DNA of 64,000 nucleotides from Rosistilla carotiformis. GTDB taxonomy: Bacteria > Planctomycetota > Planctomycetia > Pirellulales > Pirellulaceae. The notes under the pieces were generated by a model. That model was not told where the DNA came from and did no database searches. It saw nothing but the letters and a program-made list of their open reading frames with translations. How positions within the stretch are numbered: position 1 is the stretch's first letter; the number at the start of each line of letters is the position of its first letter. This document shows, piece by piece, positions 6,730-63,439 of this stretch. Location of the stretch: contig NZ_CP036348.1 of the NCBI RefSeq assembly GCF_007753095.1, forward strand, positions 6,115,411 to 6,179,410. The letters are read 5' to 3'. The translations under genes and the position numbers were made by a program.

Positions 6730-7722
6730 TCAGGGAGCTAGCGTGCCCATGTCGCGCATCATCATCTGCATGTCTTGCCAGACCGCCCCCTTCATCTTTG
6801 CATTTCGCAGCAAATACGAGGGGTGGTACGTGACGACGACTTTGCTGCCGTGATAGTTGTGAAAACGGCCTCGCATCCTACCGATCGACGGCGCCGATTG
6901 AAGCAGCGATTGTGCTGCGAACAATCCCAAGCAAACGATGTATTCGGGCTGAATAATTTCCAGCTGTGTCTCGAAGAAGGGACGGCAATTTGCTAGCTCA
7001 TCCGGCAGCGGGTTACGGTTTCCCGGGGGCCGGCATTTCAGCGTGTTCATGATATAGACTTCGTCGCGCGATAATTTCGTCGCTTCGATAATCTTGGTCA
7101 GCAATTGCCCGGCGCGGCCGACAAACGGAACCCCTTCGCGATCCTCGTCAGCTCCGGGCGCTTCCCCGAAGAAAACGACGCGGGCTTGTCCGTTTCCGGC
7201 CCCAAACACCGTCTGCTTCCGGGTGCAGGCCAGTTCGTGGCAACGCGTGCACTGCGCCACCTGCTGACGCCAATGCTCCAACGAAGCTTGTCGATCGGCG
7301 ATCGGCTGCGGAACCGTCGTATAGACCGTGGGCCCCTGATCGGACGACGGCGCAGGTTTCGCGGCGGGCTGGCGAATTTCGGGAGGTCGTATCGGAGCAA
7401 CCGGCGGCGGTGCGGGAGCGGATGGCGGCGGTGCGGCATCGGATGGCGGCCTGACGGGTTCCTGAGGCACAACCGCCGAGGGGGCAACCGCGGCGGCAGA
7501 AGCTTCTTCCGCCAAGCTTCCCGACGTCGCAGCGGTCGACGCCACGGGTTCCGTCGCGACAGGCGGAGCGAAGGCAGCCGCCCACTGGGCGACAGCATCG
7601 GCATCGGACACAGGCAGGTACGCGACCCCCACACGCTGCAAATGCTGCAGCAATTGGCCGACACCGACGCGGATTTCGTCAGCCGTTGGAGCGTTCGGGT
7701 TGTCGGCCGAGGCATGGGTCAT
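6730..7722 (-). CDS. Family 4 uracil-DNA glycosylase
   Basis: A 330-residue protein. The C-terminal half is a type 4 (Fe-S) uracil-DNA glycosylase, which removes uracil from DNA in base-excision repair. Motif 1 is [17 protein letters not shown] (187-202), with GRAGQLL after it and the final HPSYLLR loop (H300). Four cysteines in the usual arrangement, C158-x2-C161 and C230-x15-C246, would hold the 4Fe-4S cluster. Residues about 50-130 are an unusually long Pro/Ala-rich linker after a short N-terminal helix. Its ATG overlaps the pyrD stop by four bases, so the two are coupled although functionally unrelated. Confidence 0.92.
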
Positions 7723-40326: not shown

Positions 40327-40347
40327 CAGAGCTCGCCGCGACAGATT

Positions 40348-41145
40348 TCACCCTCCCATCGCAGCAGGGAGGGTCGGAAAACAAGCGTTTAGCGAGTTTT
40401 TCGGCCAGGGCCGACCGACGCGAGCAATCACCGCGGACATACCTCGCGCCCCCTCCCCGAACCGCGCTTCGCGGGTTCGACCCTCCCCTACCAAACTTCG
40501 TTTGGGGGCGGGTGAAGCGATGCCGCACTTCACCTTCCCGGCGAAGCAGGGAGGGTCGGAAAACAAGCGTTTAGCGAGTTTTTCGGGGAGGGCCGACCGA
40601 CGTGATCGAGCACTGCGGACATACCTCGCAACCCCTCCCCGAACCGCGCTTCGCGGGTTCGACCCTCCCCTACCAAACTTCGTTTGGGGGAGGTGAAGCG
40701 ATGCCGAACTACACCCTCCCAGCGAAGCAGGGAAGGTCGAAAAACAAGCGTTTAGCGAGTTTTCCGGGGAGGGCCGACCGACGCGAGCAATCACCGCGGA
40801 AGTACCTCGCGCCCCCTCCCCGAACCGCGCTTCGCGGGTTCGACCCTCCCCTACCAAACTTCGTTTGGGGGAGGGTGAAGCGATGCCGAAATTCACCCGC
40901 CCAGCGAAGCAGGGAGGGTCGAAAAACAAGCGTTTAGCGAGTTTTTCGGGGAGGGCCGACCGCCGAGATCGAGCACTGCGGACGTACCTCGCACCCCCTC
41001 CCCGAACCGCGCTCCGCGGGTTCGACCCTCCCCTACCAAACTTCGTTTGGGGGAGGGTGAAGCGATGCCGCACTTCACCCGCCCAGCGAAGCAGGGAGGG
41101 TCGGAAAACAAGCGTTTAGCGAGTTTTCCGGGGAGGGCCGACCGA
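40348..41145 (+). repeat. Tandem array of 181-182 bp hairpin-rich units (4.4 copies)
   Basis: The anchor ACAAGCGTTTAGCGAG recurs at 40381, 40563, 40744, 40926 and 41108 (spacing 182, 181, 182, 182). Each unit carries the hairpins GAACCGCGCTTCGCGGGTTC and CCAAACTTCGTTTGG and several copies of GGGAGGGTCG or its complement. Units differ by scattered substitutions, so they are not freshly duplicated. The array begins about 20 bp after the panC stop. Because it is open in most frames it generates long spurious ORFs. A homologous array in opposite orientation lies at 60787-61292. Confidence 0.93.
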
Positions 41146-41313
41146 CTGCAAATCCGCTACGCGACAGCCCGGGCGTCAATTGGCAACTGGCATGCAATCC
41201 AAGCACGCCAGCGGCCGACATCTGTCCCCCATACCGAGAACCTCGCCTGCCAAATACAATAGTGTTTTAGAAAATTCCGAACCTCAGCGGCGCTCCTGGC
41301 GTCTCGGCAACTG

Positions 41314-59144: not shown

Positions 59145-60779
59145 ATGACACCTCGCTACTTGGTCGCTTTTCATCCAAAACGGGCCCTACACCGCTTCAC
59201 CGACCTCTTGGTCATTGGCGGGGGGCTTTCGGGGTTGCGGGCCGCCAATGCGGCAGCGGCGAACCAATCGGTTCTGGTCGTGACCAAGGACCGGATCCAG
59301 GAATCGAACAGCAATTACGCTCAGGGCGGGATAGCCGGCGTGATCGACGAAACCGATTCTTTTGAGAATCACGTTCAGGACACTTTGAATGCCGGCGGCA
59401 ATCTGTGCGATCGGTCGGTCGTCGACACGGTGATCCGCGAGGCGCCCCGCCGGATCGAGGAGCTGATCGCTTGGGGGACGCGATTTGATTCGCACCAAGA
59501 GGGCTCGCTGATGCTCGGCCGCGAGGGAGGGCACAGCCACCAGCGGATCGTCCACGCGCTGGGAGACGCCACGGGGCGCGAGGTGATGCGGGCGGTGATC
59601 CAGCGGACGCGCGAACGGCAGAACATCCAGATCATGGAAAACGCCTTCACCATGGATCTGCTGACGCACGAGGGGCGATGCCACGGGGCCGTCCTGGGTG
59701 TCGGCACCGACAAACCGACGCTGGTTTGGGCCAAGCAGACAATCCTGTGCACCGGCGGATGTGGGCAGATCTTCCGCGAATCGACCAACCCTCCGGTTGC
59801 GACCGCCGATGGGATCGCCGCAGCTTACCGGGCGGGTGTCGAATTACGCGACATGGAGATGATGCAGTTCCATCCAACGGTCCTCTACATCGCCGGCAGT
59901 TCGCGATTTCTGATCACTGAAGCGGTGCGGGGCGAAGGGGCACATCTGGTCGATGCGTCGGGGCATCGGTTTATGTCCGAATACGATCCGCGCGGCGAAC
60001 TGGCCCCACGCGATGTGGTCAGCCAATCGATCGTCCGCCAGATGAGCAAGACGCAGCATCCGTGTGTCTACTTGGATCTGAACCATCTGGATCCGAAAGA
60101 GGTGAAGTCGCGATTCCCTGGGATCGCCAAGGTCTGCCAAGAGTTTGGTTTGGATATCACGCAGGATCGGATTCCGGTTCGTCCCGGCGCGCACTACATG
60201 ATCGGTGGTGTTTCGGTCGATATCGAAGGCCGGACTTCGCTGCCCGGTTTATGGGCGGCGGGGGAGGTGACCAGCAGCGGGCTGCACGGCGCGAACCGGT
60301 TGGCGTCGAACAGTTTGTTAGAGGGGCTCGTCTACGGAGCCCATGCCGGCGAAGGGGCCGCGCGGGCTGCGGCTGAAATGCCCGACCGCTACGAAGCACT
60401 CAAGATCGAAGGGCCCGCGACGGCTGCCCCCGTGGAACCGCTTGATATCGGTGACATCCGCAACGCGATGAAGAGCTTGATGGGGCGGTTGTGTGGCGTG
60501 CAGCGGGACGCTCCGTCGCTGCGTCAGGCGCTCGATTCGTTGGAGTCTTATTGCAGCTACGCGTTGCCGCGACAGTTCGATTCGGTCGAGGGGTGGGAGC
60601 TGCAGAACATGCTGCTGACCGCTCGCCTGATGGCCGCCACCGCGCTGGCTCGCGAGGAGTCGCGTGGGGTTCATTTCCGGAACGACTTCCCCACCACCAA
60701 CGATGAACAATGGCGTCGCCATCTGACAGTCCAGATCGACCGCGACGGCGGCCGCCCACGTCAAACGCCAATTCTGTAG
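59145..60779 (+). CDS. nadB: L-aspartate oxidase
   Basis: A 544-residue flavoprotein that oxidises aspartate to iminoaspartate for NAD synthesis. FAD-binding DLLVIGGGLSGLRAA near residue 20, SNSNYAQGGIAGVID, REGGHSHQRIVHALGDATGRE, the active-site HPTVLYI region, RPGAHYMIGGVSVDIEGRTS and GLHGANRLASNSLLEGLVYG, with a helical C-terminal domain. The HYMIGGV arrangement and missing quinone-reductase partners favour NadB over succinate dehydrogenase. A repeat array begins within ten bases of its stop. Confidence 0.93.
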   Translation: MTPRYLVAFHPKRALHRFTDLLVIGGGLSGLRAANAAAANQSVLVVTKDRIQESNSNYAQGGIAGVIDETDSFENHVQDTLNAGGNLCDRSVVDTVIREAPRRIEELIAWGTRFDSHQEGSLMLGREGGHSHQRIVHALGDATGREVMRAVIQRTRERQNIQIMENAFTMDLLTHEGRCHGAVLGVGTDKPTLVWAKQTILCTGGCGQIFRESTNPPVATADGIAAAYRAGVELRDMEMMQFHPTVLYIAGSSRFLITEAVRGEGAHLVDASGHRFMSEYDPRGELAPRDVVSQSIVRQMSKTQHPCVYLDLNHLDPKEVKSRFPGIAKVCQEFGLDITQDRIPVRPGAHYMIGGVSVDIEGRTSLPGLWAAGEVTSSGLHGANRLASNSLLEGLVYGAHAGEGAARAAAEMPDRYEALKIEGPATAAPVEPLDIGDIRNAMKSLMGRLCGVQRDAPSLRQALDSLESYCSYALPRQFDSVEGWELQNMLLTARLMAATALAREESRGVHFRNDFPTTNDEQWRRHLTVQIDRDGGRPRQTPIL

Positions 60780-60786
60780 CACTCGT

Positions 60787-61292
60787 CTTCACCCTCCCTC
60801 AAGGAGGGTCGAACCCGCGAAGCGTGGTTCGGGGAGGGAAGTGCGGCAGATCCGACAGCGGTAGGCCCTCCCCGAAAAATTCGCTAGACGCTCCTTTTTC
60901 GACCCTCCCAGCTGCGCTGGGCGGGTGAAGGGCCGGCTTTGTTTTACGATGGCCCGGTAACGCTCGTTTTCACCCTCCCCCAGGGAGGGTCGAACCCGCG
61001 AAGCGTGGTTCGGGGAGGAGAGTGCGGTGGATCCGGCGGCGGTAGGCCCTCCCCGAAAAATTCGCTAGACGCTCCTTTTTCGACCCTCCCAGCTGCGCTG
61101 GGCGGGTGAAGCGCGGGCTTTGTTTTACGCGGGCCCGGTAACACTCGTTTTCACCCTCCCTCAGGGAGGGTCGAACCCGCGAAGCGTGGTTCGGGGAGGG
61201 GAGTTCGGCAGATCCGACAGCGGTAGGCCCTCCCCGAAAAATTCGCTAGACGCTCCTTTTTCGACCCTCCCAGCTGCGCTGGGCGGGTGAAG
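60787..61292 (-). repeat. Tandem array of 181 bp hairpin-rich units (about 2.8 copies)
   Basis: The anchor CTAGACGCTCCTTTTTCGAC recurs at 60884, 61065 and 61246 (spacing 181, 181). Read on the minus strand the units match the 40348-41145 array module for module, with the hairpins GAACCACGCTTCGCGGGTTC and CCAGCTGCGCTGG and the CCCTCCC/GGGAGGG boxes. It fills the space between the convergent nadB and hom genes. Confidence 0.93.
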
Positions 61293-61328: not shown

Positions 61329-62639
61329 TTATTCGCCGACTTTGACTCGCAAGCGAATCACCTTGCCGACGACGCAATCGAGGTTTTCGATCTCGTTTGC
61401 AGCTCGACCGGCGGCTCCTTCGGGAGCGCTGTGAGTCATGATCACCAACGGAACGACATCGCTGGTCCCATCGTTGGCTGGTTCGTGTTGGATCACCGAT
61501 GCGATCGAAACCTGATGGCGCCCCAGAACTCCAGTGATCTCACCCAACACGCCGGGAGAATCGTTGACATGCAGACGCAGATAATAGCGTCCGGGGAGTT
61601 CGCTGAACGGACGCAAACTGACGCGCGGCTGTTCGTCGCCGTTGAACTGTTTTAATGTCTGGAAGGTCAGTCGCGTGCGACCGACCGCGGTGTCGATGAT
61701 GTCGGCGACCACTGCCGATGCGGTTGGCATCTGGCCAGCGCCGAGCCCGTGGTAGAAGACGGGGCCGACGGCATCGCCGCGGACGGCGATCGCGTTAAAC
61801 GCGTCTTGAACTTCGGCCAGCGGCGTCCCCGCTTTGACCAAAGTGGGAGAGACGTGGAGTTCAAGCCCTTCGCTGCCCAAGCGGGCGACGGCTAGCAGCT
61901 TAATGCGATATCCCAGCTCGCGAGCGTATTGCAGGTCGGCCGGGTCCAATTGGTCGACGCCCAGTCGCGGGATGTCGGCCCAACGTGGATGGGCACCAAA
62001 GGCGAGGTGAGCGAGGATCGCCAGTTTTTGAGCGGCATCGGTGCCGTCGACGTCCATCGTCGGATCGGCTTCGGCGTATCCAAGTTCCTGCGCCTGGGCG
62101 ACGGCATCGTCGAAGGACATTCCCAAGCGATCCATCTGCGTGACCAGGAAATTGCTGGTCCCGTTGAGGATCCCTTCGAGCGAGAGGATCTGGTTGGCCG
62201 ACAGGCACTGGCTGATGTTCGTGATGATCGGGATGCCACCGGCAACAGCCGCTTCGAACGCGATGCACTGTCCCAGTTCGCGGGCGCGACCAAACAGTTC
62301 GGGGCCATGTTCGGCCAGCAAAGCCTTGTTGGCGGTGACGACGTCTTTGCCGCTTTCGAGCAATTTCAGCATGATCGTGCGAGCCGGTTCTAAGCCACCG
62401 ATCAATTGCGCGACGACCTTGATCTCGGGATCGTTGAGGACATCGTCGAGGTCTTCGGTGACAACGCCTTCGGGCAAATCGGCGTATTCAGGCTTGCTGG
62501 CATCGCGAACTACCGCGCGTTGCAGCCACAGCGTGCGGCCCGCGTGCCGCGCCGTACGATCGCCGTGATCCAACAGCAGCTTTGCCACGCCGGTACCCAC
62601 GGTTCCCAAACCAACGATTGCAACCTTCGTCTTTTCCAT
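61329..62639 (-). CDS. hom: Homoserine dehydrogenase
   Basis: A 436-residue monofunctional homoserine dehydrogenase reducing aspartate semialdehyde to homoserine for Met/Thr/Ile. NAD(P) motif KVAIVGLGTVGTGVA, GGLEPARTIMLKLLESGKDV, TANKALLAEHG, GGIPIITNISQCLSANQI, ILNGTSNFLVTQM and the catalytic EADPTMDVDGTDAAQKLA. A C-terminal ACT domain (LRLHVNDSPGVLGEITGVLG) provides allosteric control, probably by threonine. The start at 62639 is preferred to an ATG eight codons upstream, giving the usual opening MEKTKVAIVG. Confidence 0.95.
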   Translation of the reverse strand: MEKTKVAIVGLGTVGTGVAKLLLDHGDRTARHAGRTLWLQRAVVRDASKPEYADLPEGVVTEDLDDVLNDPEIKVVAQLIGGLEPARTIMLKLLESGKDVVTANKALLAEHGPELFGRARELGQCIAFEAAVAGGIPIITNISQCLSANQILSLEGILNGTSNFLVTQMDRLGMSFDDAVAQAQELGYAEADPTMDVDGTDAAQKLAILAHLAFGAHPRWADIPRLGVDQLDPADLQYARELGYRIKLLAVARLGSEGLELHVSPTLVKAGTPLAEVQDAFNAIAVRGDAVGPVFYHGLGAGQMPTASAVVADIIDTAVGRTRLTFQTLKQFNGDEQPRVSLRPFSELPGRYYLRLHVNDSPGVLGEITGVLGRHQVSIASVIQHEPANDGTSDVVPLVIMTHSAPEGAAGRAANEIENLDCVVGKVIRLRVKVGE

Positions 62640-63439
62640 TGTCTTGTTATCTTCAAATCGCAAATATTATTGAGGTCCTGACGCCTGGAATGGTAGACGT
62701 TCCCACCGTTGGCTACCAGCATGGCTGCTGACCAGCGACCTTATCTGGCATATAAGAAACGTGCTCGACGCAGGGTTTGACGCTCACCATTCCCTGAATT
62801 TTCCTTGTTTTTCTCGTAAACAATCCCCTCGAGCCCAGGGGAGTTCGGGAGGAAGTCTCGGGCAGAAGAATGGAGCGGATACCGGGCGCAACCGATTTGC
62901 AGCGCAATGTCGACGAGAAACGTCGTCTGAATGTTTGTCGAATCCCCGCGTCACGATGGACAGCATTTCGCTGGCTCCTTCGTGCTTAACGACGGCGCGA
63001 GCGGAAGCAAAAGAGTCGCTGGAATGCCCCCCGCGGTGTGGATGTTCAAGTGCGACTGTTGGGGGCGTGCATGGTGTGCCGTCAAAGTAGTCAGCCAAAA
63101 AACATCGCTGCACACAAAACAGTCTTATCCTCAATCCGCAGGCAAACGCTCGGGCACGTTGGCGATGAAACGGCAGATTGTATCGCAAAATTTTCAAGAT
63201 CGGATCGACGTTGCGGTGGTGGTGAGGTGGAATTCCCCACCGCAAAGCAATTCTTCAGCACGTCTGGCAAATCAGCCAAGGGCCACCTAAGGGGCTGTCG
63301 AGGGAATTTCTGGCACTACGTTTGCGTCTCGTCTTTGGAATCAATTCCGATGCTATTCAATTCGGTGTGTCCACGCACCCCATTTGCACCGGCGTTTTCT
63401 GCCAACCGCCCCCCTCCTTTCCATCTCAAGAGAGTAGAC
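62640..63439. other. Long intergenic region with one hairpin
   Basis: About 800 bp between the divergent hom gene and the second DUF1559 gene, with no convincing gene. An inverted repeat, TTGCGGTGG (63211-63219) and CCACCGCAA (63237-63245), is the only structure noticed. Clear promoter hexamers for either gene were not seen. Confidence 0.4.

What the first reader, a model, noticed from the sequence alone, without database searches (positions are those of the whole stretch)
60787..61292. Homologous array, opposite orientation, between convergent nadB and hom
A second array of the same period (181, 181) is the reverse complement of the first, module for module, and also begins within ten bases of a biosynthetic gene's stop. 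Two arrays with the same unit length 20 kb apart suggest a mobile, self-amplifying REP/BIME-like element targeted to gene ends, possibly moved by a transposase encoded elsewhere.
Basis: partly seen in the sequence, partly recalled or inferred. Interest (0 to 1): 0.6.

Follow-up and report, generated by a model that had tools for sequence, protein, structure and literature searches.

The report
Hairpin repeat arrays at gene ends
Behind the nadB gene of this planctomycete sits a three-copy tandem array of a non-coding DNA repeat that recurs at some 35 places in the same genome, mostly at gene ends; it resembles the REP/BIME repeats of other bacteria, seems to grow and shrink in place rather than jump, and in a few cases marks places where the chromosomes of related species were rearranged.

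Summary
The array is real: three 181-bp units between nadB and hom. It belongs to a large family: 108 module-B hairpins (E<=0.01) in this 7.44-Mb genome (Rosistilla carotiformis Poly24, judged by identical genome length), 89 and 77 in two congeners, 63 in one other genus. The unit is an inverted pair of composite hairpins (A and B) between TTCACC and GGTGAA. The usual core is 168-173 bp plus a site-specific spacer; the nadB array reaches 181 bp differently (142 + 39).

The anatomy is BIME-like: alternating hairpins, tandem amplification, gene 3' ends. It fails membership in the RAYT-linked REP families: no GTAG foot, no A/B module at 35 Y1-transposase loci, and the RAYT-like gene examined has its own, different repeats.

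Current movement is hardly seen. Units resemble their own array (92%) and the orthologous array in sister species (88%), not other arrays (72%); 193 of 211 have their nearest relative at home. Module number differs at 18 of 20 three-way shared sites. A few transfers between sites and four groups of synteny junctions at arrays were found.

Best reading: an old BIME-like repeat family, amplified by local duplication and recombination; its original mover is unknown. Triplex folding is the boldest untested idea.

The parts
59145..60779 (+). nadB, L-aspartate oxidase; its stop codon lies 9 bp before the first core
   Evidence: TIGR00551, 563 bits; ORF
60776..61292 (.). the tandem array, period 181, 2.9 copies
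60788..60929 (+). core of unit 1, TTCACC to GGTGAA, 142 bp
60930..60968 (+). spacer 1, 39 bp
60969..61110 (+). core of unit 2, 142 bp
61111..61149 (+). spacer 2, 39 bp
61150..61291 (+). core of unit 3, 142 bp
60811..60837 (+). module-A hairpin with its right foot, unit 1 (tip GCGAAGC); further copies at 60992-61018 and 61173-61199
   Evidence: (locus L158), pair counts
60866..60901 (-). module-B hairpin with its right foot, unit 1; further copies at 61047-61082 and 61228-61263
   Evidence: (locus L158), pair counts
61329..62663 (-). hom, homoserine dehydrogenase, convergent with nadB
   Evidence: PRK06349, 488 bits; ORF
40347..41146 (.). the other array of the family in the window, opposite orientation, between panC and leuC, period 182 with 4.4 copies

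Best explanation
A BIME-like family of non-coding palindromic repeats. SHOWN: each unit is an inverted pair of composite hairpin modules. Read on its own strand a module is TTCACC, a C-rich tract, a short loop, GGGAGGGT, then a second hairpin (A, tip GCGNAGC; or B, tip mostly GCGTTTAGC), then GGGGAGGG. Stems are kept by changes on both sides. Units lie mostly at gene 3' ends and mostly at sites shared with sister species. The number of units at a site differs between species, units within an array and between orthologous arrays are alike, and now and then a unit type is shared by two different sites. A few sites coincide with rearrangement junctions. INFERRED: growth, loss and homogenisation come from replication slippage and homologous recombination between direct copies, helped by hairpins on single-stranded DNA; the 3' position persists because it spares promoters and coding sequence and may help to end or protect transcripts. 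The first spread may have used a single-strand (HUH-type) enzyme, but none was identified.
For: 108 module-B matches at E<=0.01 in G000, 89 in G001, 77 in G002. Strict A/B alternation on opposite strands in nearly every multi-module cluster. Both-side stem changes: 36 cells against a shuffled mean of 2.1 in B, 22 against 9.4 in A (rows are related). Tandem gaps: 19 of 21 clusters nearer the 3' end in G000, 22 of 25 in G001, 17 of 19 in G002. Unit identity 0.921 within arrays (210 pairs), 0.876 between orthologous arrays (338), 0.716 between other arrays of one genome (7304). Nearest unit: same array 103, orthologous group 90, other site 18 of 211. Module number differs at 18 of 20 three-way shared sites. 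Spacers resemble their own flanks: at least 75% match over 6 nt on the left in 39% of 41 arrays against 4% with other sites, on the right 24% of 45 against 3%. Alignments of both flanks break at the array in four groups of sites.
Against: Growth by recombination is inferred from static genomes. Flank-spacer likeness may partly reflect decayed units outside the called array. Some sites were replaced or exchanged (L159/L161, L137/L142, L236/L235, perhaps L136), which local duplication alone does not give. A role in transcription is not shown: no intrinsic terminator was found in the nadB-hom gap. When the whole unit is folded, the best structures are not the simple A and B hairpins. The co-occurring RAYT-like gene leaves transposition possible. 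The convergent excess is modest (12 of 36 against 13 of 86 background gaps, p=0.029; the divergent deficit by gap count is not significant, p=0.18).
Confidence: 0.7

Rival explanations
1. An active non-autonomous element moved today by a RAYT/Y1 transposase encoded elsewhere.
For: Each genome has sites without a counterpart in the others. A RAYT-like gene with NHYH and NYVL motifs exists at G000:2044676-2045302; close homologues are in 5 of 61 genomes and 4 of these 5 are among the 5 of 60 genomes with module B. Units were apparently exchanged between a few sites.
Against: No A/B module around 35 Y1_Tnp loci or the five RAYT-like loci with close homologues. The RAYT-like gene has its own flanking repeats. 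G002 keeps 77 module-B matches without that gene, G061 has 2 matches with only a 26% homologue, and G017 has a broken homologue and no match. No clean empty site or target duplication at the sites examined.
Confidence: 0.15
2. Each half-unit is an intrastrand purine-motif triplex (C-rich tract, GGGAGGG, mirrored GGGAGGG) with hairpin A or B as its second loop; such structures stall replication and cause both array length change and rearrangement.
For: The Y-R-R order with at most one mismatch each is present in 227 of 243 A and 202 of 269 B modules; a blind scan of the G000 loci finds 132 in 21,813 array bases and 2 in 246,622 bases outside. The central A of the feet is fixed, as an A.A-T triad would need. 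E. coli triplex motifs of the same order are associated with rearranged loci (PMC4666352, abstract and passages). Synteny junctions at arrays.
Against: The motif definition was made after seeing the sequence. The feet are invariant, so no covariation tests the third strand; the right feet of A and B are also complementary to each other, which explains their conservation as well. The B-side C-rich tract departs from the complement of its foot in 181 of 269 copies, in 61 by two or more bases. The second loop is far longer than the 1-6 nt of the published motifs.
Confidence: 0.15
3. The modules are G-quadruplex elements with a hairpin loop.
For: G3-N(1-2)-G3 on both sides in 177 of 243 A and 196 of 269 B modules.
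Against: The one-base loop should be free to vary, yet it is A in 830 of 838 feet that match GGGNGGG; over a quarter of the modules lack the tracts.
Confidence: 0.05
4. The arrays are kept chiefly as 3'-UTR or transcription-ending elements for neighbouring genes.
For: Bias to 3' ends and to convergent gaps; conservation of sites.
Against: No U-tract terminator at the nadB-hom array; no shared function among 72 flanking proteins; unit number at a site is free to change.
Confidence: 0.25

Closest known systems
Modular BIMEs / BIME-2 (inverted REP pairs in tandem; E. coli, Stenotrophomonas; PMC2817692, passages)
   Same: Palindromes in alternating orientation, tandem units, inter-REP segments particular to each array, intergenic, palindromes kept by complementary changes.
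   Different: No GTAG foot, no A/B repeat at a RAYT gene, a larger unit of about 180-195 bp with four hairpins and TTCACC/GGTGAA ends, and sites mostly stable over species.
GTAG/CGTC-tagged REPs and REPINs (PMC3733652, passages; PMC3116915, abstract start in listing)
   Same: High-copy palindromes in intergenic DNA, singles and clusters.
   Different: Neither tag is present; a GGGAGGG foot on both sides of the hairpin instead.
Class 3 TnpA-Y1 genes with REPtron-like flanks, mainly in Planctomycetes (PMC6006769, section 27)
   Same: Planctomycete host; structured repeats that can be numerous.
   Different: Those structures have a CnGA foot and flank the gene; A/B repeats do neither here.
Intrastrand triplex motifs (PMC4666352, abstract, section 15 and passages)
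   Same: Order of C-rich tract, purine tract and mirrored purine tract; reported association with rearranged loci.
   Different: The second loop here is a hairpin of more than 20 nt against 1-6 nt there; two motifs are fused as an inverted pair and amplified in tandem.

Membership tests
REP/BIME with a cognate RAYT (REPtron) | high-copy imperfect palindromes in intergenic DNA | tested here: met
   108, 89 and 77 module-B matches in three genomes; 35 of 36 G000 clusters called between genes without overlap listed, and the 36th likewise (one search lists no overlap for G000); one G002 cluster (L223) overlaps a called gene
REP/BIME with a cognate RAYT (REPtron) | alternating orientation and tandem modules | tested here: met
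   cluster strings
REP/BIME with a cognate RAYT (REPtron) | GTAG (or CGTC) tag next to the hairpin | tested here: not met
   alignments A1 (81 rows) and A2 (68 rows) show GGGAGGGT and GGGGAGGG
REP/BIME with a cognate RAYT (REPtron) | copies of the repeat flank the transposase gene | tested here: not met
   0 of 35 Y1_Tnp loci and 0 of 5 loci of the RAYT-like gene and its close homologues; two Y1_Tnp matches of G012 had no locus, and two weaker RAYT-model matches in G000 were not fetched
REP/BIME with a cognate RAYT (REPtron) | presence of the RAYT correlates with abundance of the repeat | tested here: inconclusive
   overlap of 4 between 5 gene carriers of 61 and 5 repeat carriers of 60, but G002 has the repeats without the gene and the gene has other flanking repeats; only this one gene family was tested
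Intrastrand triplex motif | Y-R-R tracts of 6-15 nt with at most one mismatch | tested here: met
   7-nt tracts: 227 of 243 A and 202 of 269 B modules
Intrastrand triplex motif | loops of 1-6 nt | tested here: not met
   the second loop is hairpin A or B
Intrastrand triplex motif | triplex forms in vitro | not testable with these tools
   needs CD, NMR or footprinting
MITE | terminal inverted repeats | tested here: met
   TTCACC/GGTGAA ends, short and with mismatches at some units
MITE | target-site duplication and clean empty sites | tested here: inconclusive
   no clean join by eye at the six sites with adjacent flanks in G000, but these intervals are diverged
CRISPR | unique spacers between repeats | tested here: not met
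   spacers are near-identical within an array

The most novel reading that the evidence does not exclude
Each half-unit folds on single-stranded DNA into a hairpin-capped intrastrand triplex, and this genus maintains some 35-50 such tandem 'triplex-BIMEs', mostly at gene ends, as recombination hot spots. Units are copied between sites as core-plus-spacer monomers (for instance circles that recombine into another core, so that the spacer is a barcode of origin), and the arrays are seams along which these chromosomes are rearranged, without a dedicated transposase.
Probability: 0.17. Interest if true: 0.72.

Novelty: new variant of a known kind. Interest (0 to 1): 0.5.

Why it matters
It gives a BIME-like family in a phylum where few are described, with three closed genomes of one genus, array-specific spacers that can serve as barcodes, and orthologous sites with different copy numbers. 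That makes an old question testable: do such arrays grow by local recombination or by transposase action? The coincidence of some arrays with synteny junctions also offers a case for structured repeats as a cause of chromosome rearrangement.

Tried and rejected
Rfam: no match in the window at gathering thresholds. Named nadB relatives: no A/B motif in 80 loci, 754,583 bases, so the named set gave no orthologous array. Clean empty sites: none seen; where the G000 flanks are adjacent the interval holds 117, 204, 51 and 59 bp at the sites of L174, L177, L192 and L206, about 160 bp at L209 and 1 kb with an open frame at L229; the L206 site keeps what looks by eye like a unit end. Quantised spacers: site medians group at 8-14, 20-28 and 32-39 over 40 sites, but unimodality is rejected only marginally (Silverman p=0.047 on the 37 sites under 45 nt) and a third mode is not supported; a lead only. 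G-quadruplex: rejected because the loop base is fixed. Intrinsic terminator or sigma-70 promoter in the gap: none. Shared neighbour function: 155 Pfam families over 72 flanking proteins, none in more than 3. Likeness of module B to the repeat of the RAYT-like gene (CGAGC.TTYAG.?CGA): 12 in the 7,254 bases of L306 and L307, 25 in the G000 array loci with none outside arrays, 0 in the named loci, but 0 at the homologues L308 and L309; not relied on. Orientation of A relative to the tandem genes: 8 same, 13 opposite in G000, no clear rule. A single crossover between arrays L145 and L147: their present opposite orientation does not give the junction seen in G001/G002, so more than one step is needed.

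Rows dropped: L254 (no motif) from orthology and context counts; 3 of 84 distinct B and 10 of 78 distinct A sequences were left out of alignments A1 and A2; one of 52 G001 clusters without a called gene on both sides; two Y1_Tnp matches of G012 without a locus. Motifs were found by consensus matching with up to 6-9 substitutions, so the counts of modules and of loop variants lean towards the consensus. The genome tool scores only 100-150 candidates per genome for the model, so family sizes are lower bounds.

Full report
WHAT IS THERE. The window is G000:C1:6115411-6179410 of a one-contig genome of 7,437,004 bp. That is the length printed for one strain in the Rosistilla description, whose R. 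carotiformis type strain Poly24 has 7.43 Mb; 7,250,512 bp, the length of G001, stands next to it in the table (PMC7716947, passages only). I therefore take the organism to be R. carotiformis and G001 to be an R. oblonga strain; G002 remains unnamed. The array at 60776-61292 has period 181 and 2.9 copies, with module-A hairpins at 60811, 60992 and 61173. It lies between convergent nadB and hom.

ANATOMY. Two hairpin modules alternate on opposite strands. Module A has the consensus GGGAGGGTCGAACGAGCGAAGCGANGTTCGGGGAGGG, module B GGGAGGGTCGGAAAACGAGCGTTTAGCGAGTTTTTCGGGGAGGG (68 and 81 rows). Each is preceded on its own strand by TTCACC, a C-rich tract and a short loop, so that a half-unit is two abutting hairpins followed by a purine foot. 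DNA folding of the two half-units of unit 2 gives that picture, z -3.49 and -2.61. Folding the whole 181-bp unit does not: there the feet of A and B pair with each other or with the end tracts (z -2.38 as DNA, -2.35 as RNA). Cores run from TTCACC to GGTGAA, mostly 168-173 bp; the nadB core is 142 bp. Spacers are near-identical within most arrays and differ between arrays. The equal period of the two window arrays is thus 142+39 against about 170+12.

STRUCTURE. In module B the pair 15-39 occurs as GC 27, AT 25, GT 21, TA 4, other 4; 36 cells change on both sides against a shuffled mean of 2.1. In module A it is 22 against 9.4, but pair 17-28 is unpaired in 30 of 68 rows. Rows of one array are related, so these are not independent events. 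The tip of module A is GCGNAGC in 231 of 243 copies in three genomes, with N being A 156, C 59, G 11, T 5. That d(GCGNAGC) makes a very stable DNA minihairpin is recalled (a search listing shows papers on an extraordinarily stable GCGAAGC hairpin); that it points to single-stranded DNA as the selected form is my inference.

FAMILY SIZE AND RANGE. BLAST with one unit gives 111 matches in the own genome. The covariance model of module B gives 108 at E<=0.01 there, and 89 in G001 and 77 in G002 at E<=0.001. Of 40 genomes, own included, 6 have a BLAST match: G000, G001, G002, G014, and weakly G012 and G017. Of 60 genomes of the family 5 have model matches at E<=1e-5: G000 100, G001 88, G014 63, G061 2, G053 1. 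In the two G014 loci that I read, the B half and the TTCACC/GGTGAA-type ends are kept, the A half differs, and the units lie among other repeats.

POSITION. With my own codon-usage gene caller (not a published one) the 36 clusters of G000 lie in 12 convergent, 21 tandem and 3 divergent gaps. In tandem gaps 19 of 21 are nearer the 3' end (two-sided p 2.2e-4); G001 and G002 give 22 of 25 and 17 of 19, mostly the same sites and so not independent. Other gaps of at least 30 bp in the same loci number 13 convergent, 57 tandem, 16 divergent. The convergent excess has p 0.029 by gap count and 0.0026 by bases; the divergent deficit 0.18 and 0.020. No Pfam family is found in more than 3 of 72 flanking proteins.

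INHERITANCE AND AMPLIFICATION. Of 34 G000 loci with an array, 26 have both flanks in one G001 array locus and 22 in one G002 array locus, 27 in at least one. Mean unit identity is 0.921 within arrays, 0.876 between orthologous arrays and 0.716 between other arrays of one genome. The nearest unit lies in the same array for 103, in the orthologous group for 90 and elsewhere for 18 of 211 units. Of the 18, nine have no unit at home to match. Signs of transfer between sites: L137 and L142 share an identical 21-nt spacer, 0.90 alike in L224; L159 matches L161 at 0.928 against 0.764 at home; L236 matches L235 at 0.853 against 0.759; L136 matches L249 at 0.832 against 0.652. Module number differs at 18 of 20 three-way shared sites. 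Spacers resemble their own flanks more often than those of other sites, as a duplication of core plus flank would give; decayed units outside the called array could mimic this.

MOVEMENT TESTS. I took 14 sites of G001 or G002 that had no partner among the G000 array loci. Their flanks are adjacent in G000 at 6 (L174, L177, L192, L206, L209, L229), far apart at 2 (L188, L200), clear on one side only at 5 (L178, L180, L191, L196, L214) and not found at 1 (L216). None of the 6 shows a clean join by eye. Beside the split L188 site G000 keeps what looks like a decayed B module. So there is loss and decay, and no demonstrated insertion.

THE TRANSPOSASE QUESTION. Five Y1_Tnp matches in G000 and 30 loci from four relatives show no A/B module in the DNA held, about 3.5 kb and 1.5 kb on each side. 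Three of the five own proteins pass the IS200/IS605 model and none the RAYT model. The best RAYT-model match in G000 (2044799-2045197, 66 bits, cut-off 80; two weaker ones at 3724568 and 4696417 were not fetched) belongs to a gene at 2044676-2045302 with NHYH and NYVL invariant in four aligned homologues. It stands between repeats of its own, containing GCGCTGGAGTCGAGCCTTTAGGCG. By coordinates the nearest A/B match is about 21 kb away. Close homologues occur in 5 of 61 genomes: G000, G001, G014 intact, G017 broken and G053 a fragment with a stop; ten others have only 24-28% matches. Four of these five have module B at the level; G017 has only the weak match. Against this, G002 has the family without the gene and G061 with a 26% match only. 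I read the co-occurrence as suggestive of a past link, or of shared ancestry, and not as proof.

REARRANGEMENT. L190 (G001) and L232 (G002) join the left flank of L147 to the right flank of L145, sites about 967 kb apart in G000; the alignments end 26-42 bp from the G000 arrays and 26-91 bp from the others, arrays plus 25 bp having been masked. L146 (G000) joins the left flank of L231 to the right flank of L227, both array sites of G002. The flanks of L188/L230 lie about 391 kb apart in G000 and those of L200/L238 about 131 kb. The genome-wide number of breakpoints was not determined, so enrichment is not established.

TRIPLEX LEAD. A C-rich tract, a purine tract and a mirrored purine tract, at most one mismatch each, are present in 227 of 243 A and 202 of 269 B modules, and a blind scan of the G000 loci finds 132 in 21,813 array bases and 2 in 246,622 others. 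The definition was made after seeing the sequences, and no change in the feet tests the third strand. Published E. coli motifs of this order are linked with rearranged loci (PMC4666352, abstract and passages), but have short loops (section 15).

COMPARISON WITH THE LITERATURE. Seen: passages of PMC3733652, PMC2817692, PMC8266576, PMC6749651, PMC7716947 and PMC8303584; section 27 and passages of PMC6006769; abstract, section 15 and passages of PMC4666352; of PMC12306157 only two places in its reference list matched my terms. The closest kind is the modular BIME. Searches for a description of this family: planctomycete REPs (5 papers), planctomycete tandem repeats (15 of 21 listed), Rhodopirellula palindromic repeats (1 paper), Rosistilla (10 of 20 listed), and letters of the unit end (5 of 19 listed). 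None of the listed titles and abstract starts describes it; subscription papers are not in that library.

VERDICT. The REP/BIME-like reading is right about what it looks like, and the evidence favours local amplification; current mobility and a transposase are not shown. I call it a new variant of a known kind: BIME-like, not a member of the RAYT-linked REP families.

Noticed in passing
L306:1501-2127 (G000:2044676-2045302): RAYT-like gene (NHYH, NYVL) standing between a cluster of its own repeats with GCGCTGGAGTCGAGCCTTTAGGCG; homologue 95% identical in G001, not found in G002.
   Followed up: partly
L166:3515-4556 (G000 near 2460232): IS200-like gene overlapped downstream by an open frame made of tandem repeats (GWAGVEHEFPRVEDRRSG...), suggesting another repeat array beside a Y1 gene.
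   Followed up: no
L290:3189-4189 (G000 near 1271190-1272190): At the place where G002 has a unit (L229), G000 has about 1 kb of other sequence with an open frame that by eye resembles Rpn-type PD-(D/E)XK nucleases (label recalled, no search made).
   Followed up: no
L192 right flank; several places in G000: Another palindromic repeat, around CCTGGGACGCAAGTCCCAGG: query 1707-1750 matches eight or so places in G000, several near 4472629-4481311.
   Followed up: no
L038 and L051 (G014): In another genus B-type units lie in mosaics with palindromes of the type CCAGCTTGGAAAGCTGG and CGAAACTTTTGACAAGTTTCG.
   Followed up: no
L173 (G001:380100-388600): A variant array with spacers of 139-140 bp, spread over two clusters with similar spacers.
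   Followed up: no
40 array sites of the three genomes: Spacer lengths seem to fall in classes about 12 bp apart (8-14, 20-28, 32-39); statistically marginal.
   Followed up: partly
7060-7092 and 7403-7450: Two short tandem repeats, periods 16 and 21, within the ORF 6730-7722.
   Followed up: no
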